Shown here piece by piece: positions 1 to 38,397 of a stretch of 64,000 bases of DNA (positions within the stretch are counted from its first letter, which is position 1; the number at the start of each line of letters is the position of its first letter). The DNA comes from Arabidopsis thaliana. Lineage: Eukaryota > Streptophyta > Magnoliopsida > Brassicales > Brassicaceae. The translations under genes and the position numbers were made by a program. Location of the stretch: assembly GCF_000001735.4 (NCBI RefSeq), contig NC_003071.7, positions 10,595,151-10,659,150 on the forward strand, written 5' to 3'. Below the pieces are notes generated by a model. That model did not search any database. It saw only the letters and a program-made list of their open reading frames with translations, and was not told where the DNA came from.

Positions 1-756
1 TCACAAGCCAGAAATCTTCCCATAGTTCGACTGTTAGAAGCGATAAGACAGATGATGACTAGATGGTTTGCTGAACGGAGAGATGATGCGAGCAAACAGC
101 ATACTCAGCTCACACGTGGTGTTGAGAAACTCTTACAGGTAACTCAGCTGTAACTAGTGCATAACTCAGTCGTCGAATAACGATAACCCCGTCATAACGA
201 GAATAACTCAGCCATAACGAGAATAACTCAGCCATAAAGAGAATAACTCAGCCATAACTTTTTTGTTTTGTTTCTTGTCTCTTCTCTTTAATAGACCCGC
301 GTCAACTCGTCAAGACTACTGGATGTACAAACGATTGATGCTTCCCGCGTTCAAGTAGCTTATGGAGCATCTTTGCATGTTGTAAATGTGGATGAAAAAC
401 AATGCACATGCCGTCTTTTCGACAAAGAGAAATTACCATGCATCCATGCAATCGCAGCTGTAGAGCATTTGGGTGTGTCTCGTATATCCCTGTGCAGTCC
501 TTATTATAAGAGCAGTCATTTGGTCAATGCGTACGCTGGTGCAATCATGCCTTCAGATACAGAAGTCCCTGTTCCTCAAATTGTAATTGACCAACCGTGT
601 TTGCCTCCGATTGTTGCGAACCAGCCAGGCAGGCCCAAGAAACTAAGGATGAAATCAGCACTAGAAGTCGCCGTTGAGACTAAACGCCCTAGGAAGGAAC
701 ACGCATGTTCTCGATGTAAAGAAACAGGGCACAATGTTAAAACTTGCCGTGCATAG
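1..756 (+). CDS. MULE transposase (MURA-like), 3' end with SWIM zinc finger and CCHC knuckle; partial
   Basis: This is the C-terminal end of a Mutator-family transposase, which cuts and rejoins element ends in the nucleus. Two exons are visible: 1-138, entering from the left edge in frame, and 295-756. They join in phase 0 across a 156-bp GT-AG intron. The first exon reads SQARNLPIVRLLEAIRQMM, a typical helical tail. Exon 2 holds a SWIM zinc finger, C-T-C followed by C-I-H in CTCRLFDKEKLPCIHAIAA, then a basic linker and a CCHC knuckle (CSRCKETGHNVKTC) just before the stop. Both zinc motifs keep their ligands. The DDE catalytic core must lie left of the window. The intron contains five copies of the element's CTCAG motif. 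Confidence 0.9.
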
Positions 757-813
757 TACTGTTTGTACTCTGTATGTGTCTTCTTTCCCTTGTTTGGCAA
801 CAGTGGTATGTAT

Positions 814-1035
814 TTTTACATGTTATGGCCGAGTTATATAATTAGGGAAATCGAAAGAATCGGTCATTTTACATGTTATGGCCGAGTTATGGAATTAGGG
901 AAGTCCAAAGGTTCGGTCATTTTACATGTTATGGCCGAGTTGAGTTCATTTTACCTGTTACGGCTGAGTTATCGATAAACTATGAAAGGCTTAAGACTGA
1001 GTTATATTCGTATTATGTTATTTAGTGTCTGAGTT
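814..1035 (-). repeat. Motif array in reverse orientation with a 53-bp tandem repeat
   Basis: Just after the transposase stop the element motif appears on the opposite strand, as GTTATGGCCGAGTTAT. The unit around TGTTATGG recurs at 821, 874 and 927, a 53-bp period. Further reverse copies (CTGAGTTA) follow at about 965-1035. Elsewhere in the element the arrays read forward, so orientation flips here. Confidence 0.75.
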
Positions 1036-1148
1036 ATTTAATTTTGAAGGCAAAGACAAAATGAAGTTCCCATAAATAGTTGTTTGAAGGATACATAGGA
1101 GGAATGAAAAGTAAACAATGGTAATAACCCGATTCCTTCCATCTTCCA

Positions 1149-2165
1149 TTACTCGAGGACCATTTTTAACTCTTGCACTTCTTCGATATTGGGGTCGACA
1201 GTCACATCTGATATCATCAGATGATTTTGGATCTTCACGTGATTGGGGCCAGGATGATACCTGAAGATCTTCCACCAGGTGAGTGCAACATATATATTGT
1301 CAATAACAATACTGTCATTGCGAAAATATCGAAATTTCCTATGCAAGTCAACCGCCAATTCGCCAGAGGCCTCACATTTCAACCTCTCTTTACTGAAACA
1401 TATAAAACAGTCTTACAATTAAGCTAACTGAAGAAAAATACATGATCAAAAGAAAGAAATTTAGAAGTAAAGAAACAAAAGAAATTATACTATTTGTCCA
1501 TAATCTGGAAGGTAAGTCTGAATCCGTCCATCTCCCAACCATCTTTTGTAATATTTCTCAGACATCCGACCTCGACGAGTGCACCAACCAAATCTGGGAG
1601 TATGAAATAAAGATTAAAAACAGGCATGTGATTTGTGAAAGTATGAAATTTGCATTAGATACGTATTACTTACCGACCAAATAATCAGTATCACTGGTGT
1701 CTTCAGTAATGTAGTCATAAGGTGTGAATCTGTTAAATAATACAGTTTCCCTTGGGTCGGAATGAGTTACCTCAGTTGCATTCATGAACTCAATCATGTA
1801 TTTGTGGGTTGTTGTTCGGACAAAACCCCAGTTTTCGATAACACCAAAAGTTCTGATTTCTTTCCACTGATTCTCTTCAAGCATGTCGTAGTAACGTTGA
1901 GAAAACCGAGTTCCGATTATAGCTTCAATTTGGATACCCTATGAAAACAAAATTGGAGGGTGAGTTATATAGGGAATAAGACAAGCAGAAGGTTAAGTAT
2001 GCCTTGTATCACGAGTGAAGATCCCATTACCCACTCATCTACAAAGACGACCCGTAGTTCGAATGAGTTATCTGTGATAAACAAGACGTACTTCCTAAGA
2101 ACCATAACACAAATCGTCCAGCAAGTTATGCAAGGATTCAAGTCGCGGAGGCCGTCGTAACCCAT
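1149..2165 (-). pseudogene. RPA1-like OB-fold (DUF223) gene relic carried by the MULE
   Basis: Related to the large subunit of replication protein A, which binds single-stranded DNA. Three exons join cleanly: 2031-2165 (MGYDGLRDLNPCITCW...), 1674-1938 and 1593 down to a stop at 1490-1492. The exon 2 passage WKEIRTFGVIENWGFVR and the exon 3 passage DLVGALVEVGCLR fit the N-terminal OB folds of Arabidopsis RPA1-like proteins. A further piece at 1149-1382 (ISDVTVDPNIEEVQEL) looks like a later segment of the same family, but I cannot splice it in with confidence. The total is far shorter than a full RPA1 (about 600 residues or more) and the frame closes soon after the second OB fold, so I call it a truncated, decayed capture. 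RPA1-like genes are commonly found inside plant transposons. Confidence 0.65.
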
Positions 2166-2329
2166 GCTGAAATTCTGAGTCGTTGAAAATTAAAGAAATA
2201 TTTTGTTAGCTTCTGTTTGTGCGAGTTTAGCCTTCTGGTGTTTATGGGAGAAGCCGTTTTTATAGGCGTATTAAACCGCTGGTAATTGGGCCGGATATAA
2301 CCGGATATAACCGTACCTCGGTTAGTCAG

Positions 2330-2910
2330 TAAATCGTATTGAACTTCATGTCATTTAATTCACAACTCAGCCGTAATGTCATTTCAATCAGCCGTAACAA
2401 GGACGATTTATCACCAAACTCAGCCGTAACACGCAACCTTTCGTATTCCTTGACTTGTATTTTTAATAATTCTTGACAACTCAGCCGTATAATAGTTACA
2501 TGTCTTGGGTATAACTCAGCCGTAACAATATATTTTGCCGCCAAACTCAGCCGTAGTACGGAAATATTTTCCCGCCAAAACACGGAACCTCTCGCATTCC
2601 TTCACCTGTCCTTTTTAATAATTCTTGACAACTCAGCCGTATAATAGTTACATGGCTTGGGTATAACTCAGCCGTAACAATATATTTTGCCGCCAAACTC
2701 AGCCGTAGTACTGAAATATTTTCCCGCCAAAACACGGAACCTCTCGCATTCCTTTACCTGTCCTTTTTTCTTGACAACTCAGCCGTATAATAGTTATATA
2801 TCTTGGGTATAACTCAGCCGTAACAATATATTTTGCCGCCAAACTCAGCCGTAGTACGGAAATTTTTCCCGCCAAACGAACAGACACGAACCTCTCGCAT
2901 TCCTTTACCT
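2330..2910 (+). repeat. Tandem repeat of about 150 bp, roughly three copies, built on the element motif
   Basis: The landmark TCAGCCGTATAATAG recurs at 2481, 2633 and 2779, giving spacings of 152 and 146 bp. Each unit contains three or four CTCAGCCGTA copies plus a CCGCCAAA block. The open frames on the minus strand here are near-identical to one another only because of this repetition. The array lies just upstream of the small gene at 2981 and may be its promoter region. Confidence 0.85.
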
Positions 2911-2980
2911 GTCTTTTCTTTTCTATAAATCAGTTACTTGAACTCATCATTTAGACGTCTCATCCTCACATCTTAACGAC

Positions 2981-3523
2981 ATGGTGCCTCATATCGACGG
3001 ACAGTTTCTAAGAGATGTTGAAGCCGTGCTCACCGCTCCTGATCGTGCAGATCTCCCAGTTCTAAACCCTGGATTGGGTACATGGGTCGACAAAACCACT
3101 GTTACGTGGTTCAAATTCAATCACGAACTAGCTGTCGCGATTGGTGATATACTCCAGCGCAACTTTCACCATGCGTGGCCGACGTACCGGATGATTCCTG
3201 TTGTTTTCAAGGCAAGGTGGTTTTTCCTCCCCACGGTAAGCATCGAGTTTTTATATAAAGCACTTCCTGTAAACCGTAGACCAAATTCTTACTATTTGCT
3301 CTCTTTGTAGCGTATGCACACCTGGGATTCAAGGCACACGCTGACGGTGTGGACGCAGTTTAATTTGGTGGCTAGAACGTTGTACCGGGACAATATGCGG
3401 GCGCTGAAACGGGGATGGGCGCGTGGTTTGGATAAGCCGAGGTGGATGACGACAACAGTTTGGAATGATTTGGTGGACATGTTTACTGAATTTGGCCCGG
3501 ATGATGTCGGTTTCATGTCTTGA
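2981..3523 (+). CDS. Unrecognised 155-aa protein, MULE accessory gene
   Basis: Two exons, 2981-3235 and 3311-3523, join in phase 0 across a 75-bp GT-AG intron ending in TTGTAG and give 155 residues. I do not recognise the family. The protein is rich in Trp, Arg and hydrophobic residues (ARGLDKPRWMTTTVWNDL), has no signal peptide or membrane segment, and ends in an acidic tail. An AT-rich leader and the ~150-bp motif repeat lie directly upstream, and another motif array follows the stop. The clean splice and absence of internal stops suggest real coding, probably as transposon cargo. It could also be an exon pair of a larger lost gene. Confidence 0.5.
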
Positions 3524-3659
3524 ATGCTTTTGTGTCTCTTACTTATCGTCCCTTTATCTCATTCCTATGAACTCAATATGTTTTATGATGGCTTTATATC
3601 TAATATTATCTACGATCGCCTTCTCAGTAAAGTCAGTGTTTATCGCTTGAGGTTACTTG

Positions 3660-3925
3660 TTAAATTTTATCATAACTCAGTCATAGCGTATGATTAACTC
3701 AGTCATAGCGTATAATTAACTCATCCAAAACATTATAATAACTCAGCCGTAACCTATATTTCAGAAGACACAACATATATTAACTCAGCCATACCGTATG
3801 ATTAACTCAGCCACAACATTATAATAACTCAGCCGTAACCTATATTTCAGAAGACACAACAGATATTAACTCAGCCATAGCGTATGATTAACTCAGCCAC
3901 AACATTACCAGTATAACTCAGTCAA
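3660..3925 (+). repeat. Motif array with an 86-bp tandem unit
   Basis: About a dozen CTCAG[T/C]C copies. The block around ACTCAGCCGTAACCTATATT recurs at 3741 and 3827, an 86-bp spacing. No coding signal. Confidence 0.8.
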
Positions 3926-4076
3926 CGATATTGGATTAGCTTGGCCGAAGACAAAGTTCCATTTCATTGCAAGCTACTACTTGAACCAAAAAAACGAATT
4001 AACCCTATACGCTGAGATAAACATCAAACACATAATGGATTCCAGTAGCAAACAATTCATACAAACATAAAACAAA

Positions 4077-4616
4077 CTAGTAGCCCAGAAAAAGCCTCTG
4101 TTCGTTGATTTTTGGGAACATTAAGATACCAAAAACAATGACAATGATAATAAAGGCAAGACAAAAGCAGCAAAGTTTGATCATCAATTTCCATTTCTGG
4201 TTTTCTCTTTCGCTCCTCATCACTTCTTCCTTCAGTTCTTTCACCATCGCCTGTAACGCTTCTAGCTCGACAGAAACCTCGGACTTGGCCGCGCTTAACT
4301 CACTGTCGAAGCCGGCCAATTTCGGCCAACTGTCTACAACCACTTCGTATGTACCATCTTCGACCCATTTAAACAGATGGTCCTGTATATTCAATTACAT
4401 CCGCAATTAACAACGAAACCAATAAAACCCTCAAATCAATTATATACTTACATCTAAACGCGTAGGACAACGGAAGTATGGTCTTCCAGGGTTCTTTGCT
4501 GACGACGACGTATAGATGACCACGTCTAATCCGCAATGACACTTCGATGGTAACCCACGTCCCCAACGGCTGACGGATTGCGTACTCGCAATCGAGTTCT
4601 CGGAATTGCTACTCAT
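4077..4616 (-). CDS. GRF-type zinc finger protein with coiled coil and C-terminal membrane segment
   Basis: Two exons (4452-4616, 4077-4382) join in phase 0 to give 156 residues. Residues 1-55 hold a GRF zinc finger: CHCG, then SSSAKNPGRPYFRCP, the NPGR...F.C signature of that fold. After the splice (DHLFKWVEDG) a heptad-like acidic/basic helix runs from about residue 75 to 120 and is followed by a hydrophobic stretch of about 20 residues (CLAFIIIVIVFGILMF) that should span a membrane. Small GRF/coiled-coil/TM proteins are a recurring Arabidopsis family; GRF fingers bind DNA or RNA ends in other proteins. Here the gene sits inside the MULE, flanked by motif arrays, and is related in design to the gene at 6710. 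Its function is not known to me. Confidence 0.75.
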
Positions 4617-4830
4617 ATCTTTAATTTTTAGCTGGGAAATTCGGAGACGAAAAGCAAGAAGGAGCTCCGGATCTGAAATCAGAAATTGGAATTTTAAAAC
4701 TTAGGATTCTGTTTAGGTGATTTATTAGTGTGTCATTTGGTTTTTGTCACAACGACGACGTATCTGGTCAATAAAAGAGACTCTGTAACAAACCGACGTC
4801 GTATCTGGCGTAGCGGAGAATATTTTTAAT

Positions 4831-6377
4831 AACATATGGTATCCCATAACTCTGCCAAAATACGAAATCTTATTGAATAATTCAGCCGTAACGTTATTTG
4901 ATTCCACGTCGAAACAGAAAATTAGATTATTGGAGGGTTTAGTTAAGGAATAATTTTGAATATTGACGTGTTTGTGCATCTATGAAACCAATCATTATTC
5001 GCGTTTCCCTATTAACTCATTTTTTTTAATCTCGAGAATAACACAATAATTGTTTCTCGATAAACACAGCAAAAGCAAAACACAGCAATATTCTGACTGA
5101 TTTGATGACATCGATCGAACCAACAGTAATGCTTGTATTCAAATCTCATAATAACATTTGGTTTTCTCTTATGTAGTTCAAAAAATGGAAATCTTCTAAC
5201 ATAACTCAGCCACAATAGAGGAATAACTCAGCCATCACTTTGTTATAACTCGGCCAAACCCTGAAATTGCTTTTCTTGAGCCAACAGTTGCGAAGATCAA
5301 GTAATTAACATATCATAACCACTTTCCAAATAGAGGAACCGTGAAACTAGGTCATATCCTACAAACTTTATTCAACATCCTACTTTGTCCAACATCATAC
5401 TATATCCAACAACATACTTCCTAGAGTTTTTGACAGACCATGATTTGTCAATCGACACGTGCTGAAAATAAAAGTTATTTTCTGTTTTCAAATTGCACAT
5501 CTTCAAGCTAATAATATAACCAACAATTTGGTGGCTGGTTTGATATATCATAATAACATATGGTATCCCATAACTCTGCCAAAACACGAAATCTTATTGA
5601 ATAACTCAGCCGTAACGTTATTTGATTCCACGTCGAAACAGAAAATTAGATTATTGGAGGGTTTAGTTAAGGAATAATTTTGAATATTGACGTGTTTGTG
5701 CATCTATGAAACCAATCATTATTCGCGTTTCCCTATTAACTCATTTTTTTTAATCTCGAGAATAACACAATAATTGTTTCTCGATAAACACAGCAAAAGC
5801 AAAACACAGCAATATTCTGACTGATTTGATGACATCGATCGAACCAACAGTAATGCTTGTATTCAAATCTCATAATAACATTTGGTTTTCTCTTATGTAG
5901 TTCAAACAATGGAAATCTTCTAACATAACTCAGCCACAATAGAGGAATAACTCAGCCATCACTTTGTTATAACTCGGCCAAACCCTGAAATTGCTTTTCT
6001 TGAGCCAACAGTTGCGAAGATCAAGTAATTAACATATCATAACCACTTTCCAAATAGAGGAACCGTGAAACTAGGTCATATCCTACAAACTTTATTCAAC
6101 ATCCTACTTTGTCCAACATCATACTATATCCAACAACATACTTCCTAGAGTTTTTGACAGACCATGATTTGTCAATCGACACGTGCTGAAAATAAAAGTT
6201 ATTTTCTGTTTTCAAATTGCACATCTTCAAGCTAATAATATAACCAACAATTTGGTGGCTGGTTTGATATATCATAATAACATATGGTATCCCATAACTC
6301 TGCCAAAACACGAAATCTTATTGAATAACTCAGCCGTAACGTTATTTGATTAATGGAGGGTTTAGTTAAGGAATAAT
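4831..6377 (+). repeat. Near-identical 724-bp tandem duplication, two full copies plus a truncated third
   Basis: The block beginning AACATATGGTATCCC occurs at 4831, 5555 and 6279, exactly 724 bp apart each time. Copies 1 and 2 differ at only a handful of sites seen by eye (for example AAAATACG versus AAAACACG). The third runs about 75-100 bp before diverging. The unit contains several CTCAGCC motifs and no convincing gene; the repeated minus-strand frames are by-products. The near-identity indicates a recent duplication. Confidence 0.92.
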
Positions 6378-6709
6378 TTCGAACTCGTTTGAATTATTTT
6401 GAATATTAACTGCGGGCGTGAGTACCTGTGCATGTGGACCAAATCATTACTGGCGGTTCCCCATAAAGTTGATGTTTGTTATCTCGATAATGATATAATA
6501 AATAATCTCGATAAACAAAACCCAAAGCAACACGCTAAGTAGTGACATACTACGGTATGACGACATAACTCAGCCGCAATGATATGACAAGTCAGCCACA
6601 ACGAAATTTATTCAGCCAATACAAATACGCCGTCGTTTGGTTAGTACATTTTGTGGCAGACAGGATTATATAGAACCAGTGCTTTAGTAACATACTAATT
6701 GCAGTGAAG

Positions 6710-7300
6710 ATGATGGCTCAGAGGTCTCTTTTCCAATGCGAATCTAGTGTTGATGAGGTATTTATCTCCACATCTGAATAGTACAAATCGTTGCCCATCT
6801 AACGTCGAGTACATCATGTTTGTGTTTATGTAGGAGCTCGACCGTATGGAAATAAGGACGCTAACGAGGTACGGCGAAAACAGGAGGCGCGATAAGGGCG
6901 TTCCGATCGAGTGTGATTGCAATGCTAAGGTTGTCGTTGTCACTTCTCTTGATCCTGTTACAACCGGAAAACTTTTTTTCAGTTGTCCGTACGAAATATC
7001 GGATGTAAGCATCTTTTCTTGAGTTAATATTCTTTATTTTATTTTTTTATTTTGTATCCCTATGAATCAACCTACTGGTTTTTTTATAAGGGTCCCGGTC
7101 AAGGATGCGGTTTCAAGAGATGGTGGACTGTTGCATTGTGTGACGAGTTTGACATGATAAAAGAGGAGACGACTGAGATGAAGAAGGATTTGGAAGCAGC
7201 CAATAAGCGCGTCGAGTCTCTTGCGGAAAAGATCTTTCTTATGGAAAAGAAGTTTGAAACGCTAGAGAAGAAGTATGAGAGCCTGAACAAGTATCTGTGA
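6710..7300 (+). CDS. GRF-type zinc finger protein with C-terminal coiled coil
   Basis: Three exons (6710-6757, 6834-7004, 7091-7300) join in phase 0 to give 142 residues starting MMAQRSLFQCESSVDE. The GRF finger spans exons 2 and 3: PIECDCNAKVVVVTS, then TGKLFFSCPY, then GPGQGCGFKRWW. The remainder (about residues 90-142) is a strongly charged coiled coil with regular Leu/Ile spacing and no membrane segment. It lies between the 724-bp tandem repeats and a motif array, in the opposite orientation to the GRF gene at 4077. The two may be old duplicates, but their finger sequences have diverged widely, so independent acquisition is possible. Confidence 0.75.
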
Positions 7301-7369
7301 TCTTAGAAAGATCTGTTTTTCTCAATTTGAACTTCTTTGTACTGTCTATTATCATTAAGTCAGCGAATT

Positions 7370-7620
7370 GTGCGATTATAACTCAGCCAAAACGTACAAT
7401 CTGATTAAATTTATAATAACTCGGCCGTAACGTTAGACTAACTCATCCACAACTCAATACTATCTCTACCAAAGTTGAAGTAAAATATAATAACTCAGCC
7501 GTAACGTTAGATTCACTCAACCATACATCAAGTTAATCTACGATAAGTCCGCCTTAACGTTAGAATAACAATGATTGAGTCACATGTTTAACTCAGCCAA
7601 ACATCAAGTTAATATACGAT
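7370..7620 (+). repeat. Array of the element motif
   Basis: Roughly eight copies of CTCAGCC/CTCGGCC with TAACGTTAGA between them. No coding potential seen. Confidence 0.75.
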
Positions 7621-7804
7621 AAATCTGAAAGACAAAGTTTTCGAATCACACACGCGAGTATAAAATAAAAAGTGAAGTTTGAAAATTGAAAAGACAGAGT
7701 TCATGATAACATAGGATAAGGAGTACTGGAATCCAACAACATACATATAATATAATTGAAAATAATAAATGAAGATACAATCACGTCGATCGCCATCTTC
7801 ATTC

Positions 7805-8200
7805 TTAATCAGACTCCGAATTTGGACGGTCGGTCGATCCATACCCCAGTTTGTCCCAGTCAATACTACTCACCGGGCGTTCACGCTGCGCTCTGTAGGC
7901 CTTGCCAACCTGCGCCAGCACTTTCTCGATCTTGTATTTCACGTTAAATCCGTCCCCCAATTTCTCCACTTTCCTTAAGACCTTAAGTTCCGCTTCCTTC
8001 TCATGCAGTTTGATATCGAGCAAGTGTGCTTCCTCCGTCTCCCTTATGTTGCTCCTGATGTAAGAGATGACGCATTTGAAACGCTTCTCCTGTTCATACA
8101 GCTTTAGGGTGGGGCTGTCATCCACAGACGGCCCCTTGTTGGGACCGTCATCCACACACCGCCGCTTGTTTGAACCTGAACCTGAACCGGATGCATCCAT
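7805..8200 (-). CDS. Unrecognised 131-aa protein with a central coiled coil, MULE accessory gene
   Basis: A single open exon. I start it at the Met of MDASGSGSGSNKRRC; the frame extends 29 codons further upstream, but that part is Ser/Phe-rich and lies closer to a likely leader. The N-terminus is a flexible Gly/Ser tract with a basic patch and two short DDGP/DDSP repeats. Residues 40-100 are highly charged and helix-forming (ETEEAHLLDIKLHEKEAEL), and the tail ends YGSTDRPNSESD. No known domain is recognised. Position between motif arrays and next to the Ulp1-like gene suggests transposon cargo. Single-exon structure makes chance openness a possibility, though 160 open codons with good helix patterning argues against it. 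Confidence 0.5.
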   Translation of the reverse strand: MDASGSGSGSNKRRCVDDGPNKGPSVDDSPTLKLYEQEKRFKCVISYIRSNIRETEEAHLLDIKLHEKEAELKVLRKVEKLGDGFNVKYKIEKVLAQVGKAYRAQRERPVSSIDWDKLGYGSTDRPNSESD

Positions 8201-8479
8201 GATCTCGGAATGGTTTTCTTTCTCAGAGAAAGGACAAGAGAAGAATGAAGAGTTGTAGTTGCTAAGAATTGACAAGTGAAAAGACAAGAGGAAACCAATG
8301 TATATATAGTCCTCTAACGACGTTGGGTCCTCTAACCTAACGACGTTTGGTTCTCTAACGTAACGACGTTTGGTCCTATAACGACGTTTGGATACTTGAC
8401 TATTCGGGTGTCGTAAACCGGTGTATCTATAGTCCTAAAGTCACGTCTGGTTTATTTGATGGGAGGGAAGTTTGGGTTT

Positions 8480-8700
8480 GACAAGTCAACCACCACGTTA
8501 TACAAACTCAGCCAACAAACGATTTGTCTGATGACAAGTCAGCCACCGCGTTATAATAACTCAGCTAAACATCGAATTAAACAACAATAACTCAGCCGTG
8601 TAGCACGATTTGAGCGATGACAAGTCAGCCTTCACGTTAGCATATATCAGCCGTGAAACGAATCGAGCGATGATAAGTCAGCCATTACATTGGTTTTTGT
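8480..8700 (+). repeat. Array of a CAGCC motif variant (GACAAGTCAGCC)
   Basis: Downstream of the Ulp1-like gene the motif alternates between AACTCAGCC and ATGACAAGTCAGCC. About eight copies are visible and no gene. The flanking part (8290-8400) has a small repeat of AACGACGTT[T/G]GG. Confidence 0.7.
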
Positions 8701-8823
8701 TATAATTAACATAATAATAGATTCATACGGACATAATTCTGGTTATCAATCCTAACGTGTCAATATTTAGTACAATCACATGCTAAAAATCCCAAAAGAC
8801 ACAGACATGTTCGAAAAAGCAAT

Positions 8824-11800
8824 TCAGGTCTCATAAAAACGAACGGGCATTCTGTTAGGTAATTCATCGTAGAGCTCTGTTGCCATTCTAACCCGTAGCC
8901 CCTGGATATTTGAATTATTAATGCCTTCAAAAGAAACACCAAGCAATAAACATTCAAGAATTTGTAACGTGTAAACGCCGCAGTCCCCGGTGATAGTATT
9001 CTGCGGGACCTTTTTAAGGTCCCTCCGCCGGAATGAAAATTGGTCGTATTGCGGGACACGGATTGCGGGAGGGATAATTTCGCTCATGATCTGTGGAATC
9101 ATCCTCGTGAACGGCCTACAGTATTCCTGGATTTTTCCATCGCTTTCCGGTGTATGACATCCGACGATGCAATCATAGCAGTCCACGTGACCCCTAGGCA
9201 AGTCAACGTGAATGGCCACCCAATGATTACCTCCGGTTTGGAGGATAGTATACAAGTGATCCACATCTGTTATCCACTTCTTGTTTGTCGGGTCGTCTCC
9301 ACCCGTACCGTTGACCCATTTTTCATACGTAGAACCTTTGAAAGAAACCCTCTTCGGGTTCATCTTCCACTGTGCGTAATCCTTCGTCCACATTGACGTG
9401 AACCACGGGTCTAGAATCATGACGCGTTCGCTGTAGTATGGGGTAGGATCTCGCAGGAGCCTCGTGGTGAGGAGTTTCACATACGCAGCAATGTGCTGGA
9501 CAAAAAATAAAACCAAGACAAAACACAACATTAACTCAGACGTAACCAAGTAAAACTCAGCCTTAACACCTAAATAAATCTGCCATTAGCTAAATTAACT
9601 CAGACAGAACGACACTATAACTCAGCCATAACCTTAGACAAACTCAGACAGAATATAACAATAAGTTACATCGTAAATCAGCCATTATCTACTGTAACTC
9701 AGACATAACGACACGATAACTCAGCCATAACATTAGCCAAACTCAGACAGAACATAACAGTAACTTACATCATCATACAGCCATCCATGTTTCTCGTCTG
9801 GCCAGTCCTTTCTTTCGGCCATGATAACAGAGTAGAACATCACATCGTCGAACCCATATGTTTCGTAATATTGTTTGCTAACACATAATAAAGAAAGTTA
9901 ATATAAACAAATAGTGTAAACATGTCGTATTTAACAACTTAGTAACGTATAAAGGGCCATACCTTTCAGGACCTGTCAAATAAGCCTTAAGCTTCTCCAG
10001 TTTGGCCGGATCAACCGGTGCCAGAGGATCATAGATTGCTCGTGAAGGCAGACAACCCTTTCTCATGCAGCTCAGCCCGTTGTCTCCAATAACTGGAAAA
10101 GTGTGAGTGGGCATATCTTCGGGGTTAATCAATGAGCTCCCATCCGGGGCCAGCTTAACAGTTTTGAGCCGAATTTCTTTTACACTCTTTAGCCTCTCGG
10201 TTTCCTCCTCATCTTCATCAACTCAGGAAGCATTTCATTATACTCGGATACAACCTTATCCGTGACATCAACTACATCCGAATCTAACTCAGCTTTTTCC
10301 TTAGCTTCCTCAGCTTTTGACTTTGTTTCCTCAGATGGTTTTGGTTTATTTATTCTAATCTTTAGCGCAGTAGGAGGCACCTTTTTAGGCTGCTCCAAAG
10401 GCTTTCTTCCTCTTCCTCTTCTCGTTGGCGGTTTCTGGATTAGCTCATTTAATGTTTTCTCCTTTTTGTGCTTTGGCACATTTGGGGATGGTGGCTTCCT
10501 AGAGCGTAAACGGCGATTGAGAGGAGAAACAGTCTCAACGAAATCCACATCAGACACAATGGAGACCTTATCAAATTCTGCTTCAAGCTTCCTACTTACC
10601 CCAACATCAGCTTGTTTCGACTGCATAAACGTAACGAAAACTCAGGCGTTAAACAACGAAAACTCATACCTATGTATAAATATAACTCAGCCATAACTAA
10701 CTAAACTCAGCCGTATCAAATTCATATACCTCAGCCATAACTAACTAAACTCAGCCGTATCATATTCATATACCTCAGCCGTAACTAACTAAACTCAGCC
10801 ATGCCTAATTAAATTTTTAACTCAGCCGTATAATATTCATATAACTCAGCCATAACTAACTAACTAAATTTATAACATGAAAACAACTCAGCCATAACTA
10901 ACCAGCGTTTATAACTCAGCCGTAAAATATTTATATAACTCAGCCGTAAAATATTCAGATAACTCAGCCGTATAATATTGATAACTCAGCCATAACTAAC
11001 TAAAATTTAAAACGCAGCCGAATAATAATCAGATATTAACTCGATCATAACTAACTAAAAGTTTACCGGAGGAGGACTAGGAGCAGCAGATTGGTTATTT
11101 GTAATTTTCTTTGGAACGTCTGGTGTCTTTTGAGTTTGGGCCTTACGATTGTCTTCCTGCGTTTGGGGCTGTGGTTTGGATAAAAACATATCTCTAATAT
11201 AGCTGCTTGATTTTGAATCAGCTATGGCCTTCAGCTGCTCTTTAATCTGTTTGACGTCGTTCTCAATCGATCCAAACCTTCCTTCAAACTTTGCTTCAAC
11301 ACTCGATTCGATTTGACATCCAATCACATCCAGACGGGAGGACATTTCTTTTATGCTAGTATCAACGGTGTCAAATCGAGAGTTTAAGGGAGAGATCAAG
11401 TTGGACACCACATCCACGAGCGACTGCTGGTCTCCCTGACCATCCTGCTCACGAGAACGAACATCCTCGTCCTCATCAGATTCGACAGCTACTTCCTTCT
11501 TCTTCTTCTTCTCCTTCTTCTTCTTTTCTGCATCTTTCTCAAGAGAATCAACATGCTCACCGTGAGAGACCTTCTGTTTCTTAGCGGGAGATTCAGACAC
11601 CTCCGCTTCTTTATCTTTTAAGAGTTTCTTCTTCTTCTCACTCGTCTTCACATCCCAATAACCTTTAACAAGCTTAACCTCGTGTAAGTCTTGGATCAAG
11701 TTATCAAGTGCTGGGTCTTCTAATTGGTCTGGCCAAAAATGAAACAGCTCGCTTAACTCAGCCTTTTCAACCATTGTACGAACACGCAGCTACAACAGGA

Positions 11801-12892
11801 GAGATAATAAAACCCATCAGTATGTTTAACTCAGCCATCACTTAATATAACTCAGTCGTCACTTAATATAACTCAGCCATTATAGAACATAATTCAGTCG
11901 TCACATAACATATTTGCCAAAAAAAAAGAATATAACTCAGCCTTCACAGAGAAAAATAAAACATTAACTCAGCCGTAACATAAATATTTGATAAAAAACA
12001 GAACATAACAGAGCCGAAACCGTACCTCACCACCATTCGCTTTGATATCTTCAGCAATGACCGATTCTATAGTTGAACGGGTACGGCTGCCACCCCATCT
12101 AAGCAACGGAATCTCATCCGCGTTAACAGCGTTCCCAAAACGCTCAGCGATGGTGATGATTGACTCATACGCCCAAGCCTGCAACACGAAAACCAGACCA
12201 CTGACAGTGTACGTCTTGCCAATAGGCCTCAGCAACTTTATAGAAACGACAAGGGCTTCATATGCTGCCCGACCCCATGGATAAGTCTTCATGGCTTCGT
12301 CGTCGAAAACTCTTTTGGCACTCTCAAATGGTATCCTAGAGTTAGTATGCAAGCCAAAAAGTCCAATGGATAGAAGAGTCAATAACCCAAACCATCTACG
12401 TTTTTCAGTAGGCCAAGCTCTGCACGTTACTAAGCCCTGCCTAAGTTCATCTAGATTAGGACCTTCACCGGTTGGCACACGCAATTCACTGAAGAACGCT
12501 TTGTAGTCAGCTTCAGGCTCAAACTTTTCTGTAGGCAGATCATCTATATTTAAACCAGTGATATGATGAAATTCGTTCAATCCAAACCGGATGGGTTTAC
12601 CAGCCACGATACACCAAAGCTCCTTCTTCAGTATTCTCAGCTGTCTGCATAGTAGATAATGTACGGTCTTACCAGACCAGAGAAAATGACTATCAACAAG
12701 CTTAGCAATTAATCCAAGCTCTGTCTCTTTCAGTTCTGCCCATATTTCTTCTCCTATTGATTCTCTAATTGCAGGGAACTCTCCCAGCTTTATATTATGA
12801 TTAATGCCTTTACCCTCCAGATTAGAATCCCCCTCTTGGTAAAGTCTTGGAGGGTACTCCCTTGCTTGGTCTTCAGACATCTGTATAACCAT
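8824..12892 (-). CDS. DUF1985 + Ulp1-like cysteine protease (C48, Kaonashi-type), MULE cargo; one apparent frame break
   Basis: A predicted SUMO/ubiquitin-like-protein peptidase fused to the plant DUF1985 domain. Minus-strand exons read: 12026-12892 (DUF1985, with KPIRFGLNEFHHITGL), 11067-11789 (Lys/Glu-rich linker and coiled coil), about 10190-10620 (basic, proline-rich linker), about 9963-10230, 9769-9877, and 8824-9495 (protease). The peptidase keeps a full triad: His in GGNHWVAIHVDL, Asp in GHVDCYD, Cys in TGDCGVYTL. Between the third and fourth exons the frame changes around 10,190-10,235 without an obvious intron, so this copy may be slightly broken. The start may instead be the Met at 12880, since ATACAG just before it could be a splice acceptor. 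Its introns and flanks are full of the element motif. Known: Ulp1-like genes were amplified by MULEs in Arabidopsis; substrates are unknown. Confidence 0.85.
9530..9780 (+). repeat. Motif array filling an intron of the Ulp1-like gene
   Basis: About a dozen copies of AACTCAG[A/C]C[A/G]... alternate in two sub-types, CTCAGACAGAAC and CTCAGCCATAAC. It occupies the intron between the exons ending at 9769 and starting at 9495. Confidence 0.8.
10630..11060 (+). repeat. Densest motif array, in an intron of the Ulp1-like gene
   Basis: Around twenty copies of CTCAGCC[A/G]TA separated by ATATTCATAT and AACTAACTAA spacers. A copy appears about every 20 bp. The flanking exons (ending 11067 and starting 10620) lack the motif. 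Confidence 0.85.
11815..11995 (+). repeat. Motif array in the first visible intron of the Ulp1-like gene
   Basis: About eight copies of CTCAG[C/T]C[A/G]TCAC or CTCAGCCGTAAC between the exons at 12026 and 11789. Confidence 0.8.
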
Positions 12893-13375
12893 AAATCAGC
12901 CGTAAGCATTCCATAACTCAGTCATAACATAAAACAAACTCATCCACAGATACCATAACTCAGGCAAAACATAAATCTAACTCAGCCATAGATAACATAA
13001 CTCAGTCATAACATAAACCTATCTCAGCCATAGATAACATAACTCAGTCATAACATAAACCTATCTCAGCCACACATAACATAACTCAGCCATAAGATAA
13101 ATCTAACTCAGCCATATTTTAACAGAAACTCAGTCAAACCATAACATAACAACAGCTCAGTTAAAACATAAACCAGACTCAGCTATATCAAAACAGAAAC
13201 TCAGCCATAACATAAACAAACTCAGCCGTCATATAACAGAAACTCAGACATCGATGTAAGGTTAAACCATAACTCAGTCACAGCATAAAAAAAACTCAGA
13301 CACGGATGAATTGATAAATCATAAATCAGTCGGCAAACAAACAGTAACTCAGCCGTCAAATCAAATAGATCTAAG
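12893..13375 (+). repeat. Motif array upstream of the Ulp1-like gene, at the right end of the element
   Basis: Between 25 and 30 copies of CTCAG[C/T]CATA[A/G] lie in the presumed promoter/leader of the minus-strand Ulp1-like gene. The array ends abruptly near 13,375, which I use as the inner edge of the element terminus. Confidence 0.85.
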
Positions 13376-14296
13376 AAATCGGCCACCATATGTCAATCAA
13401 CGTCGACGTTAAAACCCAGCTTTAAAAACCATCGTTACGCATCGGAAAACGATTTCAGTGACGGGAATCACTTGAGATTGAACTTAGATGTCAGAGTCTT
13501 ACTTCATTGAAAGATACTCACCGGAACTTAGATGTCGAATGTGACTTCGCGCTTACGTAAATGCGACTCCGGCGTCTGAATTTCGGCCGGAACAGACGAG
13601 AAAAGAGCAAAACGGCGAAAGAAATCGATTTCGTTCCGTCGAGAGAGAAAGTGGAAGAAAGCGACAGTTTTTTTTTTTTTTGGGAGATGATGAACAGTAA
13701 AGCTAAGAAATAAGAAACCCAAACGTTATGGAGTTTGGAGATAATTAATGACGTGGATTATGGTAATGACATGGAATAATGACATGTATAATCACTGTTT
13801 TTTCATTTAATTTTTAGTTAAAAACGAATTAAATAATAATAATTAATTAAAACTAATTAGGGGTGTTAATTGTAATTACACAATAACTGAAAACATCTGA
13901 GTAATAAAAAAAAGATGTGTTCTACTGTAGGAATAAACATACAAATGTGTTCTATCTTAGGAATTAGTTCAAATTAAATTGTCTTTTCCCAAAGCCGTCC
14001 TTTAAACCCGACGAAGTTGTTTAAGCAGCTTAAATTAAGCTCCTTGAAAGATTAAGCATTTCTGGAATTTTTATCGACTTTAATTAGAGAAAAATAAAAT
14101 ATTTTTTGATATTCCTTGTAAAAATCTGAAGAATAAAGTTTACTCCACTTATTACCGACACAAAAAAAGTTGTTCCACTTATTAAAAAAAAGTTATTCAG
14201 TTATAATTTTTTTAAAAAAATCCTCTGTTATATATCTCTCACTATCTTTTATTTGGTTCTTTCCAGAAACAATTGATCAGAGCTTTAAAGAAAAAG
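13376..14296. other. Spacer between the MULE and MAPR2, probably holding the element's right terminus
   Basis: No gene seen. It includes a GA-rich stretch (13,580-13,700), a T-run near 13,670, and short direct repeats of AATGACATGGAAT at about 13,765-13,790. A recognisable MULE terminal inverted repeat or 9-bp target duplication could not be picked out. The last 100 bp should contain the MAPR2 promoter and leader. Confidence 0.5.
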
Positions 14297-14599
14297 ATGG
14301 AATTCACCGCAGAGCAGCTAAGCCAATACAACGGCACCGACGAATCAAAGCCGATCTACGTCGCAATCAAAGGCCGTGTGTTCGATGTCACCACCGGAAA
14401 ATCCTTCTACGGCTCCGGAGGCGATTACTCGATGTTCGCCGGAAAAGACGCGAGCAGAGCTTTGGGTAAGATGAGTAAGAACGAAGAAGATGTGTCTCCT
14501 TCTCTTGAAGGTCTCACTGAGAAAGAGATCAATACTCTTAATGATTGGGAGACCAAATTTGAAGCTAAGTATCCTGTCGTTGGCCGTGTTGTCTCTTAG
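14297..14599 (+). CDS. MAPR2: MAPR2, cytochrome b5-like heme/steroid-binding protein
   Basis: A single-exon protein of 100 residues from MEFTAEQLSQYNG to VVGRVVS. The whole chain is one cytochrome b5-like fold of the membrane-associated progesterone receptor family, with the family landmarks YVAIKGRVFDVT, FYGSGGDYSMFAGKDASR and LNDWETKF. These proteins bind heme through a Tyr rather than the bis-His pair of true b5, and act in sterol and P450-linked functions. Unlike MAPR3 and MAPR5 it has no N-terminal membrane anchor, so it should be soluble. I chose this ATG because an upstream in-frame one adds only eight non-conserved residues (MIRALKKK). From memory this is At2g24940, whose NMR structure has been solved. 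Confidence 0.95.
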   Translation: MEFTAEQLSQYNGTDESKPIYVAIKGRVFDVTTGKSFYGSGGDYSMFAGKDASRALGKMSKNEEDVSPSLEGLTEKEINTLNDWETKFEAKYPVVGRVVS

Positions 14600-27284: not shown

Positions 27285-28982
27285 ATGAGATCCTCAAGAA
27301 CCATGGGAATAGAGAACTGCATAGTTTATGTTGTGGTTCTAAGTGCTATTGCGGCTACGGTGACATCATACCCTTACTCATCTCCTCAAACCCCAAGTTA
27401 CAATTCTCCCAGCTATGAACACAAAGGCCCTAAGTACGCGCCACATCCAAAACCATATGTTAAAAGTTCCCCACCACCACAATACTACACTCCATCGCCA
27501 AAGGTAAACTACAAATCTCCACCACCACCATATGTATACAGCTCCCCACCTCCACCGTACTACTCTCCATCTCCAAAGGTAGACTACAAGTCCCCACCAC
27601 CACCATACGTCTACAGCTCCCCACCACCACCGTATTACTCTCCATCTCCAAAGGTTGACTACAAGTCTCCACCACCACCATATGTATACAGCTCCCCACC
27701 TCCACCGTACTACTCTCCATCTCCAAAGGTAGACTACAAGTCCCCACCACCACCGTACGTCTACAACTCCCCGCCCCCACCGTACTATTCTCCATCTCCA
27801 AAGGTAGACTACAAGTCTCCACCACCACCGTACGTCTACAGTTCCCCACCCCCACCGTACTATTCTCCTTCTCCAAAGGTATACTACAAGTCTCCACCAC
27901 CACCATACGTCTACAGCTCCCCACCACCACCGTACTATTCTCCTTCTCCAAAGGTATACTACAAGTCTCCACCACCACCATACGTCTACAGCTCCCCACC
28001 ACCACCGTACTATTCTCCTTCTCCAAAGGTATACTACAAGTCTCCACCACCACCATACGTCTACAGCTCCCCACCACCACCATACTACTCTCCTTCTCCT
28101 AAGGTTTACTACAAGTCCCCACCTCCACCGTACGTCTACAGCTCCCCACCACCACCATACTATTCTCCTTCTCCTAAGGTTTACTACAAGTCCCCACCTC
28201 CACCATACGTCTACAGCTCTCCACCTCCACCATACTACTCTCCTTCTCCTAAGGTTTACTACAAGTCCCCACCTCCACCATACGTCTACAGCTCCCCACC
28301 TCCACCATACTACTCTCCTTCTCCTAAGGTTTACTACAAGTCCCCACCTCCACCATACGTCTACAGCTCCCCACCTCCACCATACTACTCTCCTTCTCCT
28401 AAGGTTTACTACAAGTCCCCACCTCCACCATACGTCTACAGCTCCCCACCTCCACCATACTACTCTCCTTCTCCAAAGGTTTACTACAAGTCTCCACCAC
28501 CACCATACGTCTACAACTCTCCACCACCACCATACTACTCTCCTTCTCCTAAGGTTTACTACAAGTCCCCACCTCCACCATACGTCTACAGCTCCCCACC
28601 TCCACCATACTACTCTCCTTCTCCTAAGGTTTACTACAAGTCTCCACCTCCACCATACGTCTACAGCTCCCCACCACCACCGTACTACTCGCCTTCTCCA
28701 AAGGTTTACTACAAGTCTCCACCACCATCATACGTCTACAGCTCCCCACCACCACCGTACTACTCGCCTTCTCCAAAGGTTTACTACAAGTCTCCACCAC
28801 CATCATACGTCTACAGCTCTCCACCACCACCATACTACTCTCCTTCTCCTAAGGTTTACTACAAGTCCCCACCTCCACCATACGTCTACAGCTCCCCACC
28901 TCCTCCATACTACTCTCCTTCTCCTAAAGTCACTTACAAGTCTCCACCACCACCATATGTCTACAAGACGCCTTACTATTGA
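27285..28982 (+). CDS. EXT6: Extensin, cell-wall hydroxyproline-rich glycoprotein
   Basis: An intronless protein of 565 residues. It is secreted, O-glycosylated on hydroxyprolines and cross-linked in the wall through tyrosines. A signal peptide lies at residues 7-28 (MGIENCIVYVVVLSAIAATVTS), so the working start may be Met7. After a short His/Lys/Pro region come nineteen repeats of 25 residues, each with two SPPPP glycosylation modules and Tyr motifs YVY and YYS/YYK. YVY can form isodityrosine. The first five units carry KVNYK or KVDYK, the next fourteen KVYYK, and the array ends KVTYK, with two SPPPS variants late in the array. From memory it is At2g24980; the symbol is recalled, the family is certain. 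Confidence 0.95.
   Translation: MRSSRTMGIENCIVYVVVLSAIAATVTSYPYSSPQTPSYNSPSYEHKGPKYAPHPKPYVKSSPPPQYYTPSPKVNYKSPPPPYVYSSPPPPYYSPSPKVDYKSPPPPYVYSSPPPPYYSPSPKVDYKSPPPPYVYSSPPPPYYSPSPKVDYKSPPPPYVYNSPPPPYYSPSPKVDYKSPPPPYVYSSPPPPYYSPSPKVYYKSPPPPYVYSSPPPPYYSPSPKVYYKSPPPPYVYSSPPPPYYSPSPKVYYKSPPPPYVYSSPPPPYYSPSPKVYYKSPPPPYVYSSPPPPYYSPSPKVYYKSPPPPYVYSSPPPPYYSPSPKVYYKSPPPPYVYSSPPPPYYSPSPKVYYKSPPPPYVYSSPPPPYYSPSPKVYYKSPPPPYVYSSPPPPYYSPSPKVYYKSPPPPYVYNSPPPPYYSPSPKVYYKSPPPPYVYSSPPPPYYSPSPKVYYKSPPPPYVYSSPPPPYYSPSPKVYYKSPPPSYVYSSPPPPYYSPSPKVYYKSPPPSYVYSSPPPPYYSPSPKVYYKSPPPPYVYSSPPPPYYSPSPKVTYKSPPPPYVYKTPYY
27501..28925 (+). repeat. 75-bp coding tandem repeat, nineteen units
   Basis: Length arithmetic gives exactly nineteen 75-bp units: 72 residues before and 18 after in a 565-residue protein. 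Codon use changes along the array: the 5' units favour CCACCACCA and CCAAAGGT, the middle units CCACCTCCA and CCTAAGGT. This suggests block-wise expansion by unequal exchange. Confidence 0.9.
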
Positions 28983-36540: not shown

Positions 36541-38397
36541 ATGGATATTGATGTCGGACCAGTTGATCCATCTGTCCTATACGAGCAAGACCTCCATGTT
36601 TCTTCTGCTGTTTGGGAAGGACAGGTTTTTTTCTTAATTCCCTTGCTAAATTTCAGATTTTGAATTTAGGGTTAATCTTATTTCCCCTTACTTACCTTAG
36701 GAACGAGGTCTACTTCGTTGTCAAGAACACACTTCATTGCTACATCAATGGAAACTCACTGATGAACAAATTAACCTCGTGGACAAAGCTGGTTTCGGTT
36801 ACTTTCGCAAAATCGGTCCAATGAGTTTAAACAATTCACTGATCTCTGCACTTGTTGAGCGATGGAGAAGAGAAACCAATACTTTTCATCTTCCTTTAGG
36901 AGAAATGACTATAACCTTAGACGAAGTTGCTTTAGTACTTGGACTTGAGATTGATGGAGATCCCATTGTTGGTTCTAAAGTTGGTGATGAGGTTGCTATG
37001 GATATGTGTGGTAGACTTTTAGGGAAGTTACCATCTGCTGCTAATAAAGAAGTTAATTGTTCTAGGGTTAAGCTTAATTGGCTTAAAAGAACTTTCTCTG
37101 AGTGTCCTGAAGATGCTTCTTTCGATGTTGTTAAATGTCATACTCGAGCTTATCTTTTGTATCTTATTGGTAGTACCATTTTTGCTACTACTGATGGTGA
37201 TAAAGTCTCTGTTAAGTATTTGCCTTTGTTTGAGGATTTTGATCAAGCTGGGAGATATGCTTGGGGAGCTGCTGCGTTGGCTTGTCTTTACCGAGCGCTC
37301 GGTAATGCGTCGCTTAAATCTCAGAGCAACATTTGCGGTTGTTTGACTTTGCTACAGGTTGGCTTCTATGTTAGTTTTGGTTTTCTGTCCAGTTGAGATT
37401 TCAATATCTTTAGGAAATGTAACATATGATTGTCTCATGTATATAGTGTTGGAGTTATTTTCATCTGGATATCGGTAGACCCGAGAAATCCGAAGCGTGT
37501 TTCCCGCTTGCTCTTTTGTGGAAAGGTAAAGGAAGCAGATCCAAAACCGACCTATCTGAGTACCGCAGAGAACTGGACGATCTTGATCCTAGCAAGGTAA
37601 ACCCTTCAGTTCATCCTTATGAATTTTGTATTGCTCTAAATGTTAATAATTGATGGTTGTGAAAATGCAGATCACTTGGTGTCCATATGAAAGATTTGAG
37701 AACTTGATTCCACCACACATTAAAGCCAAGCTGATTCTAGGAAGATCGAAAACGACTCTTGTATGCTTTGAGAAAATAGAGTTACATTTTCCAGATAGGT
37801 GTCTGAGGCAGTTTGGGAAACGCCAGCCGATACCTCTGAAAGTAAAACGCCGCGACAGAAAGAACCGTCGGCTTGATGACTTGGACACGTCAATGAGTCT
37901 AGCGTGTGAGGAATGGGCTGAACGTGGGGATCACATCGTGGACAGTCCTGGAGGTGGCAATGTGGTGGATGATGGAGCTTACATGGAATGGTATGCTAGG
38001 ATCAGTATCACCAAACTATACCGAGAAGCGTTTCTCGAGTCCCAAGTCATGAATATGGTAAAATAAGTTTAATCTCTATCATTTCTGTTTTTAAAACATC
38101 TTATATTTGAAACCGGCAAAATAAGTTTACTTTGGTTTGGTGTAGATTGCTTGTATGAGGGAATTTGAGGAAGCTGCTTCAGGGATTGCACTAGAGAGAT
38201 TATCTCCAGCGGAGAGAGAAGTGATGGAGAGTGTGAAAGATACATTCGCTAATAGTTTGACGTTTGGGGGATGGCAAGAGGTGGCAGTTAACAGTGGTTA
38301 CGGGAAGCGCCGGCGTCGGAATGAACACACTCCGACGCCGAATAATGGTGGTGGTAATGATATTTCGTCTCTTCTGCTTCAAAAGGAAGACTCGTGA
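36541..38397 (+). CDS. MAIL1: MAIL1 (MAIN-LIKE 1), plant mobile domain protein
   Basis: Five exons (36541-36624, 36701-37357, 37447-37596, 37671-38057, 38146-38397) give 509 residues, matching the recalled length. From about residue 45 to 400 the chain is one plant mobile domain (PMD, formerly called aminotransferase-like), with landmarks ERWRRETNTFHLPLGEMTIT, LDEVALVLGLEIDGDP, GRYAWGAAALACLYRAL and CPYERF. MAIL1 and MAIN are nuclear proteins needed for meristem maintenance, correct gene expression and silencing of transposons, acting with PP7-type phosphatases. The PMD is shared with transposon-encoded proteins, so the host copy is a domesticated relative. Decayed PMD copies lie directly downstream. 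At2g25010 from memory. Confidence 0.96.

What the first reader, a model, noticed from the sequence alone, without database searches (positions are those of the whole stretch)
139..13375. One short motif marks all non-coding DNA of the MULE: candidate recognition code for a self-protection (anti-silencing) system
Seen: a motif close to AACTCAG[C/T]C[G/A]TAAC occurs on the order of a hundred times, in introns and spacers from 139 to 13,375, and is absent from the recognisable exons and from the host genes beyond. Known: VANDAL MULEs encode VANC proteins that bind element-specific short motifs (YAGTATTAY for VANDAL21) clustered in their non-coding DNA and remove DNA methylation from them (Fu et al. 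2013; Hosaka et al. 2017). Inference: this Ulp1/DUF1985-bearing element uses a different word of the same kind, read by one of its own proteins. The DUF1985 protein and the GRF-finger proteins are candidates.
Basis: partly seen in the sequence, partly recalled or inferred. Interest (0 to 1): 0.8.

Follow-up and report, generated by a model that had tools for sequence, protein, structure and literature searches.

The report
Transposon address code for anti-silencing
A plant jumping gene in an Arabidopsis-like chromosome carries about a hundred copies of one short DNA word in its non-coding parts, and very probably one of its own proteins reads that word to keep the element from being switched off; systems of this kind are already known in Arabidopsis, so this is one more example, with its own word, and not a new kind.

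Summary
AACTCAGYCRTAAC has 88 sites with ≤2 mismatches in the window, 87 in the first 13.4 kb (shuffles: mean 1.49). By hand-set exons none of the 87 is coding; 82 share one orientation. Spacings follow the DNA helix. The 9-bp core is shared between arrays while linkers are at chance level.

The element is a MULE in Arabidopsis-like DNA. Its DUF1985 ORF is by sequence a relative of VANC21 (E 2.2e-6), the VANDAL21 anti-silencing protein, and lies in one gene model with a Ulp1 protease domain. That fits a 'KIU'-type VANC gene with the word as its binding site. Binding and demethylation could not be tested.

The kind is known: VANC21 and VANC6 read other words (PMC5735166), and a 2026 review (PMC13317346, passages) says Ulp1-carrying VANDALs recognise their own motifs, citing a 2022 paper I could not read, which may already list this word. 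Overclaims: not 'all' non-coding DNA, and one cluster is inverted.

Added here: phasing, exon exclusion and array-wise homogenisation. The motif–protein link stays an inference.

The parts
1..756 (+). 3' part of the MULE transposase gene (exons about 1-138 and 294-756; SWIM zinc finger, weak zinc knuckle); the rest would lie left of the window
   Evidence: SWIM E 5.6e-11; zinc knuckle below its cutoff; exons set by hand from splice sites
139..293 (+). transposase intron with 6 motif sites; the first directly follows the GT of the splice donor
822..1003 (-). the one clear inverted motif cluster (5 sites), part of it in a 53-bp tandem repeat
1107..2166 (-). gene with DUF223 domain; no motif sites inside it; boundaries approximate
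   Evidence: DUF223 E 4.1e-20 and 9.7e-14 on two ORFs
2364..2855 (+). motif array, 12 sites, with about three 152-bp tandem units
2981..3522 (+). two-exon gene model of unknown family
   Evidence: no family above its cutoff
3673..3907 (+). motif array, 9 sites at 22 and 42 bp spacing
4077..4616 (-). GRF zinc finger protein gene with coiled coil and a hydrophobic C-terminal stretch (last two by eye)
   Evidence: Zn_ribbon_GRF E 4e-6 on the spliced model
4617..6709 (.). spacer with 18 scattered motif sites (≤3 mismatches, 16 on +), holding a 724-bp tandem duplication at about 4823-6355
   Evidence: 98.9% identity at offset 724 over 4823-5631
6710..7301 (+). DUF730 / GRF-like gene
   Evidence: DUF730 E 9.7e-76; GRF finger below its cutoff
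7380..7603 (+). motif array, 6 sites
7805..8434 (-). ORF of unknown family (no Pfam match at E 0.1)
8505..8688 (+). diverged motif array, 4 sites
8824..12880 (-). VANC-like (KIU-type) gene model: exons about 12880-12026 (DUF1985), 11789-11067, 10620-9963, 9877-9769, 9495-8824 (Ulp1 protease; His-Asp-Cys triad seen by eye); the 10620-9963 stretch changes reading frame near 10222-10189 (small intron or frameshift, unresolved)
   Evidence: DUF1985 E 2.5e-23 and Peptidase_C48 E 8.6e-65 on single ORFs; VANC21 E 2.2e-6; exons; no transcript data
9533..9753 (+). motif array in a VANC intron, 9 sites
10639..11051 (+). motif array in a VANC intron, 15 sites
11828..12020 (+). motif array in a VANC intron, 7 sites
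12893..13359 (+). motif array 5' of the VANC coding region, 16 sites

Best explanation
The window holds at least 13 kb of an Ulp1-carrying, VANDAL-like MULE (its left end lies outside, its right end is not fixed). The word TAACTCAGYCRTAAC is the family's address code, bound by its own VANC-like protein (DUF1985, charged and coiled middle, Ulp1 domain). Several copies, set on one face of the helix by spacings near whole turns, would load the protein densely over introns and spacers, remove DNA methylation there and let hypomethylation spread over the genes. Shown here: the motif, its density, orientation, exon exclusion, helical phasing and array-wise homogenisation, and sequence kinship of the DUF1985 ORF to VANC21. 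Inferred: binding of this word by this protein, demethylation, spreading.
For: 88 sites ≤2 mismatches, 87 of them in the element, shuffles mean 1.49. 0 of 87 coding. DUF1985 and C48 in one gene model. The DUF1985 ORF matches VANC21 (9lnj, 9lnk), E 2.2e-6 over residues 85-253. Spacing phase at 10.5 bp: R 0.66 for 73 spacings; best period 10.5 with R 0.58 for 44 distinct spacings; 0 of 4000 random placements reach either value. Core identity between arrays 0.88, linker 0.33 with chance 0.31; within arrays linker 0.47, difference reached in 0 of 500 label shuffles. Orientation is kept across genes on both strands, so it looks like a DNA feature and not a transcript signal. Dense non-coding tandem arrays are described for VANC21 and VANC6 targets, same-oriented for VANC21 (PMC5735166).
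Against: No binding or methylation data. No second element could be examined, so covariation of word and protein is untested. The known words are nearly absent from the element (YAGTATTAY 0, AGTTGTCC 1, AGTTGTAC 0), and the new word's resemblance to them is near chance level. Three arrays are poorly phased (R 0.34, 0.37, 0.40). The core-identity figure is helped by picking sites for similarity. The reading-frame change in the third coding stretch may mean that this copy is broken. The Ulp1 exon found no PDB relative at E ≤0.01, so its enzymatic activity has only the Pfam match and the triad seen by eye.
Confidence: 0.8

Rival explanations
1. Neutral tandem repeats: the word is the seed of expanding minisatellites that survive only where coding constraint is absent.
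For: Arrays are locally homogenised (within-array linker identity 0.47 against 0.33 between arrays); 53-, 86-, 152- and 724-bp tandem units exist.
Against: Between arrays the linker is at chance (0.33 against 0.31) but the 9-bp core stays at 0.88, a figure helped by site picking; twelve separate blocks hold the same word in mostly one orientation, with helical phasing overall. Plain decay of repeats would not spare the core only.
Confidence: 0.08
2. The word is bound by another protein: the element's transposase, a GRF/DUF730 protein or a host factor (for instance an activator or a chromatin factor).
For: The element encodes two GRF-type proteins and a transposase with a SWIM finger.
Against: Sites are spread over 13 kb in introns and spacers, which does not suit transposase sites at ends; the layout is that of VANC targets and a VANC relative is encoded in the same element.
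Confidence: 0.09
3. The arrays are mainly sources and targets of the host's small-RNA-directed methylation and have no binding protein.
For: RdDM targets overlap VANC targets in VANDAL families (PMC10398659, passages seen).
Against: It does not explain helical phasing, conserved core with free linkers, or orientation. It can be true in addition.
Confidence: 0.03

Closest known systems
VANDAL21 / VANC21 system of Arabidopsis
   Same: DUF1985 protein related by sequence; dense, same-oriented short motif in non-coding tandem repeats (PMC5735166)
   Different: Word is TAACTCAGYCRTAAC and not YAGTATTAY (0 hits in this window); this gene model adds an Ulp1 domain
VANDAL6 / VANC6 system
   Same: short motif in tandem repeats of non-coding regions (PMC5735166)
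   Different: words AGTTGTCC and AGTTGTAC, 1 and 0 hits in the element
KIU (Kaonashi, Ulp1-carrying) VANDALs
   Same: Ulp1 domain in the VANC gene; a 2026 review says KIU-carrying VANDALs recognise specific motifs in KIU-carrying VANDALs (PMC13317346, passages)
   Different: whether this element and word are among those already listed could not be checked: the 2022 EMBO J paper is not held

Membership tests
VANC-type anti-silencing system | element encodes a DUF1985 VANC homologue | tested here: met
   DUF1985 E 2.5e-23; VANC21 E 2.2e-6
VANC-type anti-silencing system | dense short motif, one orientation, in non-coding DNA of the element | tested here: met
   0 of 87 coding; 82 of 87 on the + strand; one inverted cluster
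VANC-type anti-silencing system | motif arrays grow as tandem repeats that evolve together | tested here: met
   one element only
VANC-type anti-silencing system | motif rare outside the family | tested here: inconclusive
   1 of 88 sites outside the element in this window; genome not held
VANC-type anti-silencing system | VANC protein binds the motif | not testable with these tools
   needs EMSA, ChIP-seq or DAP-seq
VANC-type anti-silencing system | VANC expression removes methylation from copies with the motif | not testable with these tools
   needs bisulfite sequencing of transgenic plants
KIU-type VANC gene | Ulp1 (C48) protease domain in the VANC gene | tested here: inconclusive
   Peptidase_C48 E 8.6e-65 on the same strand and downstream of the DUF1985 exon; joined by a hand splice model with one unresolved frame change and no transcript data, so one gene is likely but not shown
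VANDAL (non-TIR MULE) | MULE transposase of the VANDAL clade | tested here: inconclusive
   only the SWIM end lies in the window
VANDAL (non-TIR MULE) | termini without long inverted repeats, short target-site duplication (features recalled) | not testable with these tools
   left end lies outside the window

The most novel reading that the evidence does not exclude
The word couples recognition to methylation. Of 99 sites, 86 hold CAG, a symmetric CHG methylation site, inside the core, and 36 of the 99 hold a CG at the YCG step (overlap of the two sets not counted). The motifs raise CHG sites in the element's non-coding blocks to 78.2 per kb, against 48.9 with motifs masked and 43.4 in the rest of the window. 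If the Ulp1-type VANC reads this cytosine's state, the arrays would work as a methylation-gated switch, loaded cooperatively on one helical face.
Probability: 0.1. Interest if true: 0.65.

Novelty: new member of a known kind. Interest (0 to 1): 0.36.

Why it matters
If binding is shown, it gives a further word-protein pair, in an Ulp1-type VANC whose word differs from those of VANC21 and VANC6. Together with the VANC21 entries in the PDB (9lnj, 9lnk), this would help read how DUF1985 proteins choose their DNA word and what the Ulp1 domain adds. It is also a candidate target array for sequence-specific demethylation.

Tried and rejected
Common ancestry of this word with the VANC21 and VANC6 words: the two published words share AGT..TAC; the new word matches 4 of those 6 positions (C variants) or 5 (T variants), and random permutations of it reach 4 in 0.51 and 5 in 0.09 of 20,000 trials. 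Dropped as unproven.

Splicing or RNA signal: rejected, because orientation stays the same in introns of genes on opposite strands.

Structure route: AlphaFold2 without relatives gave poor models (mean pLDDT 36.8 for the DUF1985 exon; 39.2 for the PMD ORF), so no fold search was run. PDB sequence searches found nothing for the Ulp1 exon at E ≤0.01 or for 9963-10222 at E ≤1; besides VANC21 the DUF1985 search at E ≤1 listed two NACHT-LRR-PYD chains (E 0.038 and 0.46), taken as chance.

Relatives: viral contigs gave no match to one exact DNA pattern, which allowed only 20-bp spacing, and 6 pattern stretches but no confirmed relative for the DUF1985 exon; genome contigs gave 11 stretches and no relative for the Ulp1 exon. 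By their descriptions these hold viral and prokaryote DNA, so this says nothing about plants.

Print: ACTCAGCC with VANDAL gave 1 paper, unrelated by its title and abstract start. All paper searches. Passage look-ups that added little: PMC12859917 (a 2025 lecture on then unpublished VANC-DNA structures), PMC12312487, PMC12844753, PMC12844716, PMC5821449, PMC3829657, PMC7156037 (none of the three terms found). I do not claim that the word is unpublished.

Full report
What the window is. The protein encoded at 14,216-14,599, just right of the element, is identical over 100 residues to PDB chain 1j03_A, named putative steroid binding protein; that this is Arabidopsis At2g24940 is recalled. The window also holds a long 75-bp repeat (27,468-28,965) that by eye encodes an extensin, and a plant mobile domain ORF (36,701-37,396, E 5.8e-67). 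MAIL1 is AT2G25010 (PMC5418596, passage); that this ORF is MAIL1 is inference from recalled gene order. So the host is probably A. thaliana or very close. No whole genome is held.

The observation. In 64 kb, both strands, AACTCAGYCRTAAC has 23 exact, 52 (≤1), 88 (≤2) and 121 (≤3 mismatches) sites, of which 23, 52, 87 and 109 lie at ≤13,400. Shuffles give mean 1.49 for ≤2 mismatches. An unbiased count of 8-mers in the element finds the same word: ACTCAGCC 54 times against 0.15 expected, 0 times in the rest of the window (second copy of the 724-bp duplication removed). A weight-matrix scan at 9 bits gives 107 sites in the element, 100 on the + strand, and 6 outside (same removal in the element).

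Where it lies. I set exons by hand from splice sites and frames; the DUF223 gene's borders are approximate. Coding 6,099 bp, non-coding 7,276 bp. Of 87 sites (≤2 mismatches) 0 are mostly coding; of 109 (≤3) two are. Densities are about 30-39 sites (≤3 mismatches) per kb in the transposase intron, three VANC introns and the 5' region of the VANC gene. Orientation: 101 of 109 (≤3 mismatches) on the + strand, although the genes lie on both strands; the cluster at 822-1003 is the one clear inversion.

Form of the arrays. All figures in this paragraph leave out the second 724-bp copy and the short introns. Neighbouring spacings ≤70 bp (73, after also dropping two of three 152-bp units and one site of the 53-bp repeat) have phase coherence R 0.66 at 10.5 bp; taking each distinct spacing once per array (44; the 53-bp site kept) gives R 0.58, with the best period at 10.5 among 6-20; spacings of 23 bp or more alone (29) give R 0.43. 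With random placement at a minimum spacing of 20 bp, none of 4000 trials reach the first two values, and 0.0005 of them the third. Nine of twelve arrays have R 0.56 or more; the others are 10,621-11,066 (0.34), 757-1,106 (0.37, two spacings) and 7,302-7,808 (0.40). Core identity between arrays is 0.88, linker 0.33 with 0.31 by chance; within arrays the linker rises to 0.47 (99 sites). Sites were chosen for similarity, which raises the core figure; the within-between linker comparison is free of that. So arrays grow by local tandem copying, while one word is kept in all twelve blocks.

The proteins. On the minus strand from 12,880 to 8,824 lies a gene model with a DUF1985 exon (E 2.5e-23), a charged middle and a Ulp1 protease domain (Peptidase_C48, E 8.6e-65). 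The DUF1985 ORF matches VANC21 in the PDB (9lnj, 9lnk; E 2.2e-6). The Ulp1 exon has no PDB match at E ≤0.01. The stretch 10,620-9,963 changes frame near 10,222-10,189, by a small intron or a frameshift; I left it as it is. Other proteins: transposase end with SWIM finger, DUF223, a GRF protein, a DUF730/GRF-like protein and two unknowns.

Mechanism. [quoted passage not shown] for VANC6 the words are AGTTGTCC and AGTTGTAC, also in non-coding tandem repeats (PMC5735166; parts 1-3 of 6 of the text read). RdDM overlaps these targets (PMC10398659, passages). The same layout next to a VANC relative makes it most likely that this element's DUF1985-Ulp1 protein reads TAACTCAGYCRTAAC. Binding and demethylation here are inference.

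Novelty. A 2026 review states that VANC genes with Ulp1 are known as KIUs and that KIU-carrying VANDALs recognise specific motifs in other KIU-carrying VANDALs (PMC13317346, passages); I take its reference 61 to be the 2022 EMBO J paper, without having seen that entry of its list. The EMBO J paper is not held. From memory, its abstract speaks of at least ten such systems in Arabidopsis, of domain gain and loss (DUF1985, DUF287, Ulp1) and of motif density and helical periodicity. So the kind is known and this word may be listed there already; my helical-phase result would then agree with theirs.

The KIU membership row went from met to inconclusive, because the one-gene model rests on a hand splice with an open frame change; the poorly phased arrays and the Ulp1 PDB miss were added.

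Noticed in passing
11,969-12,895 (-) and 36,701-37,396 (+): The DUF1985 ORF weakly hits the plant mobile domain (E 0.0013) and the host PMD ORF weakly hits DUF1985 (E 0.0009), both below Pfam cutoffs. If real, a TE anti-silencing protein and TE-silencing host factors (MAIN, MAIL1) would share an ancestor. The PMD ORF did not hit VANC21 in the PDB at E ≤10.
   Followed up: partly
4,823-6,355: A 724-bp tandem duplication, 98.9% identical, inside the element points to recent rearrangement.
   Followed up: partly
6,710-7,301 (+): Gene with full-length DUF730 match (E 9.7e-76) inside the MULE, suggesting that DUF730 proteins can be transposon cargo.
   Followed up: no
8,314-8,391: Short tandem repeat of about 23 bp around TAACGACGTTTGG, a second unrelated repeat word in the element.
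   Followed up: no
10,189-10,222 (-): Reading frame changes inside the third coding stretch of the VANC-like gene; small intron or frameshift.
   Followed up: partly
2,981-3,522 (+): Two-exon gene model on the + strand without any Pfam family above cutoff.
   Followed up: partly
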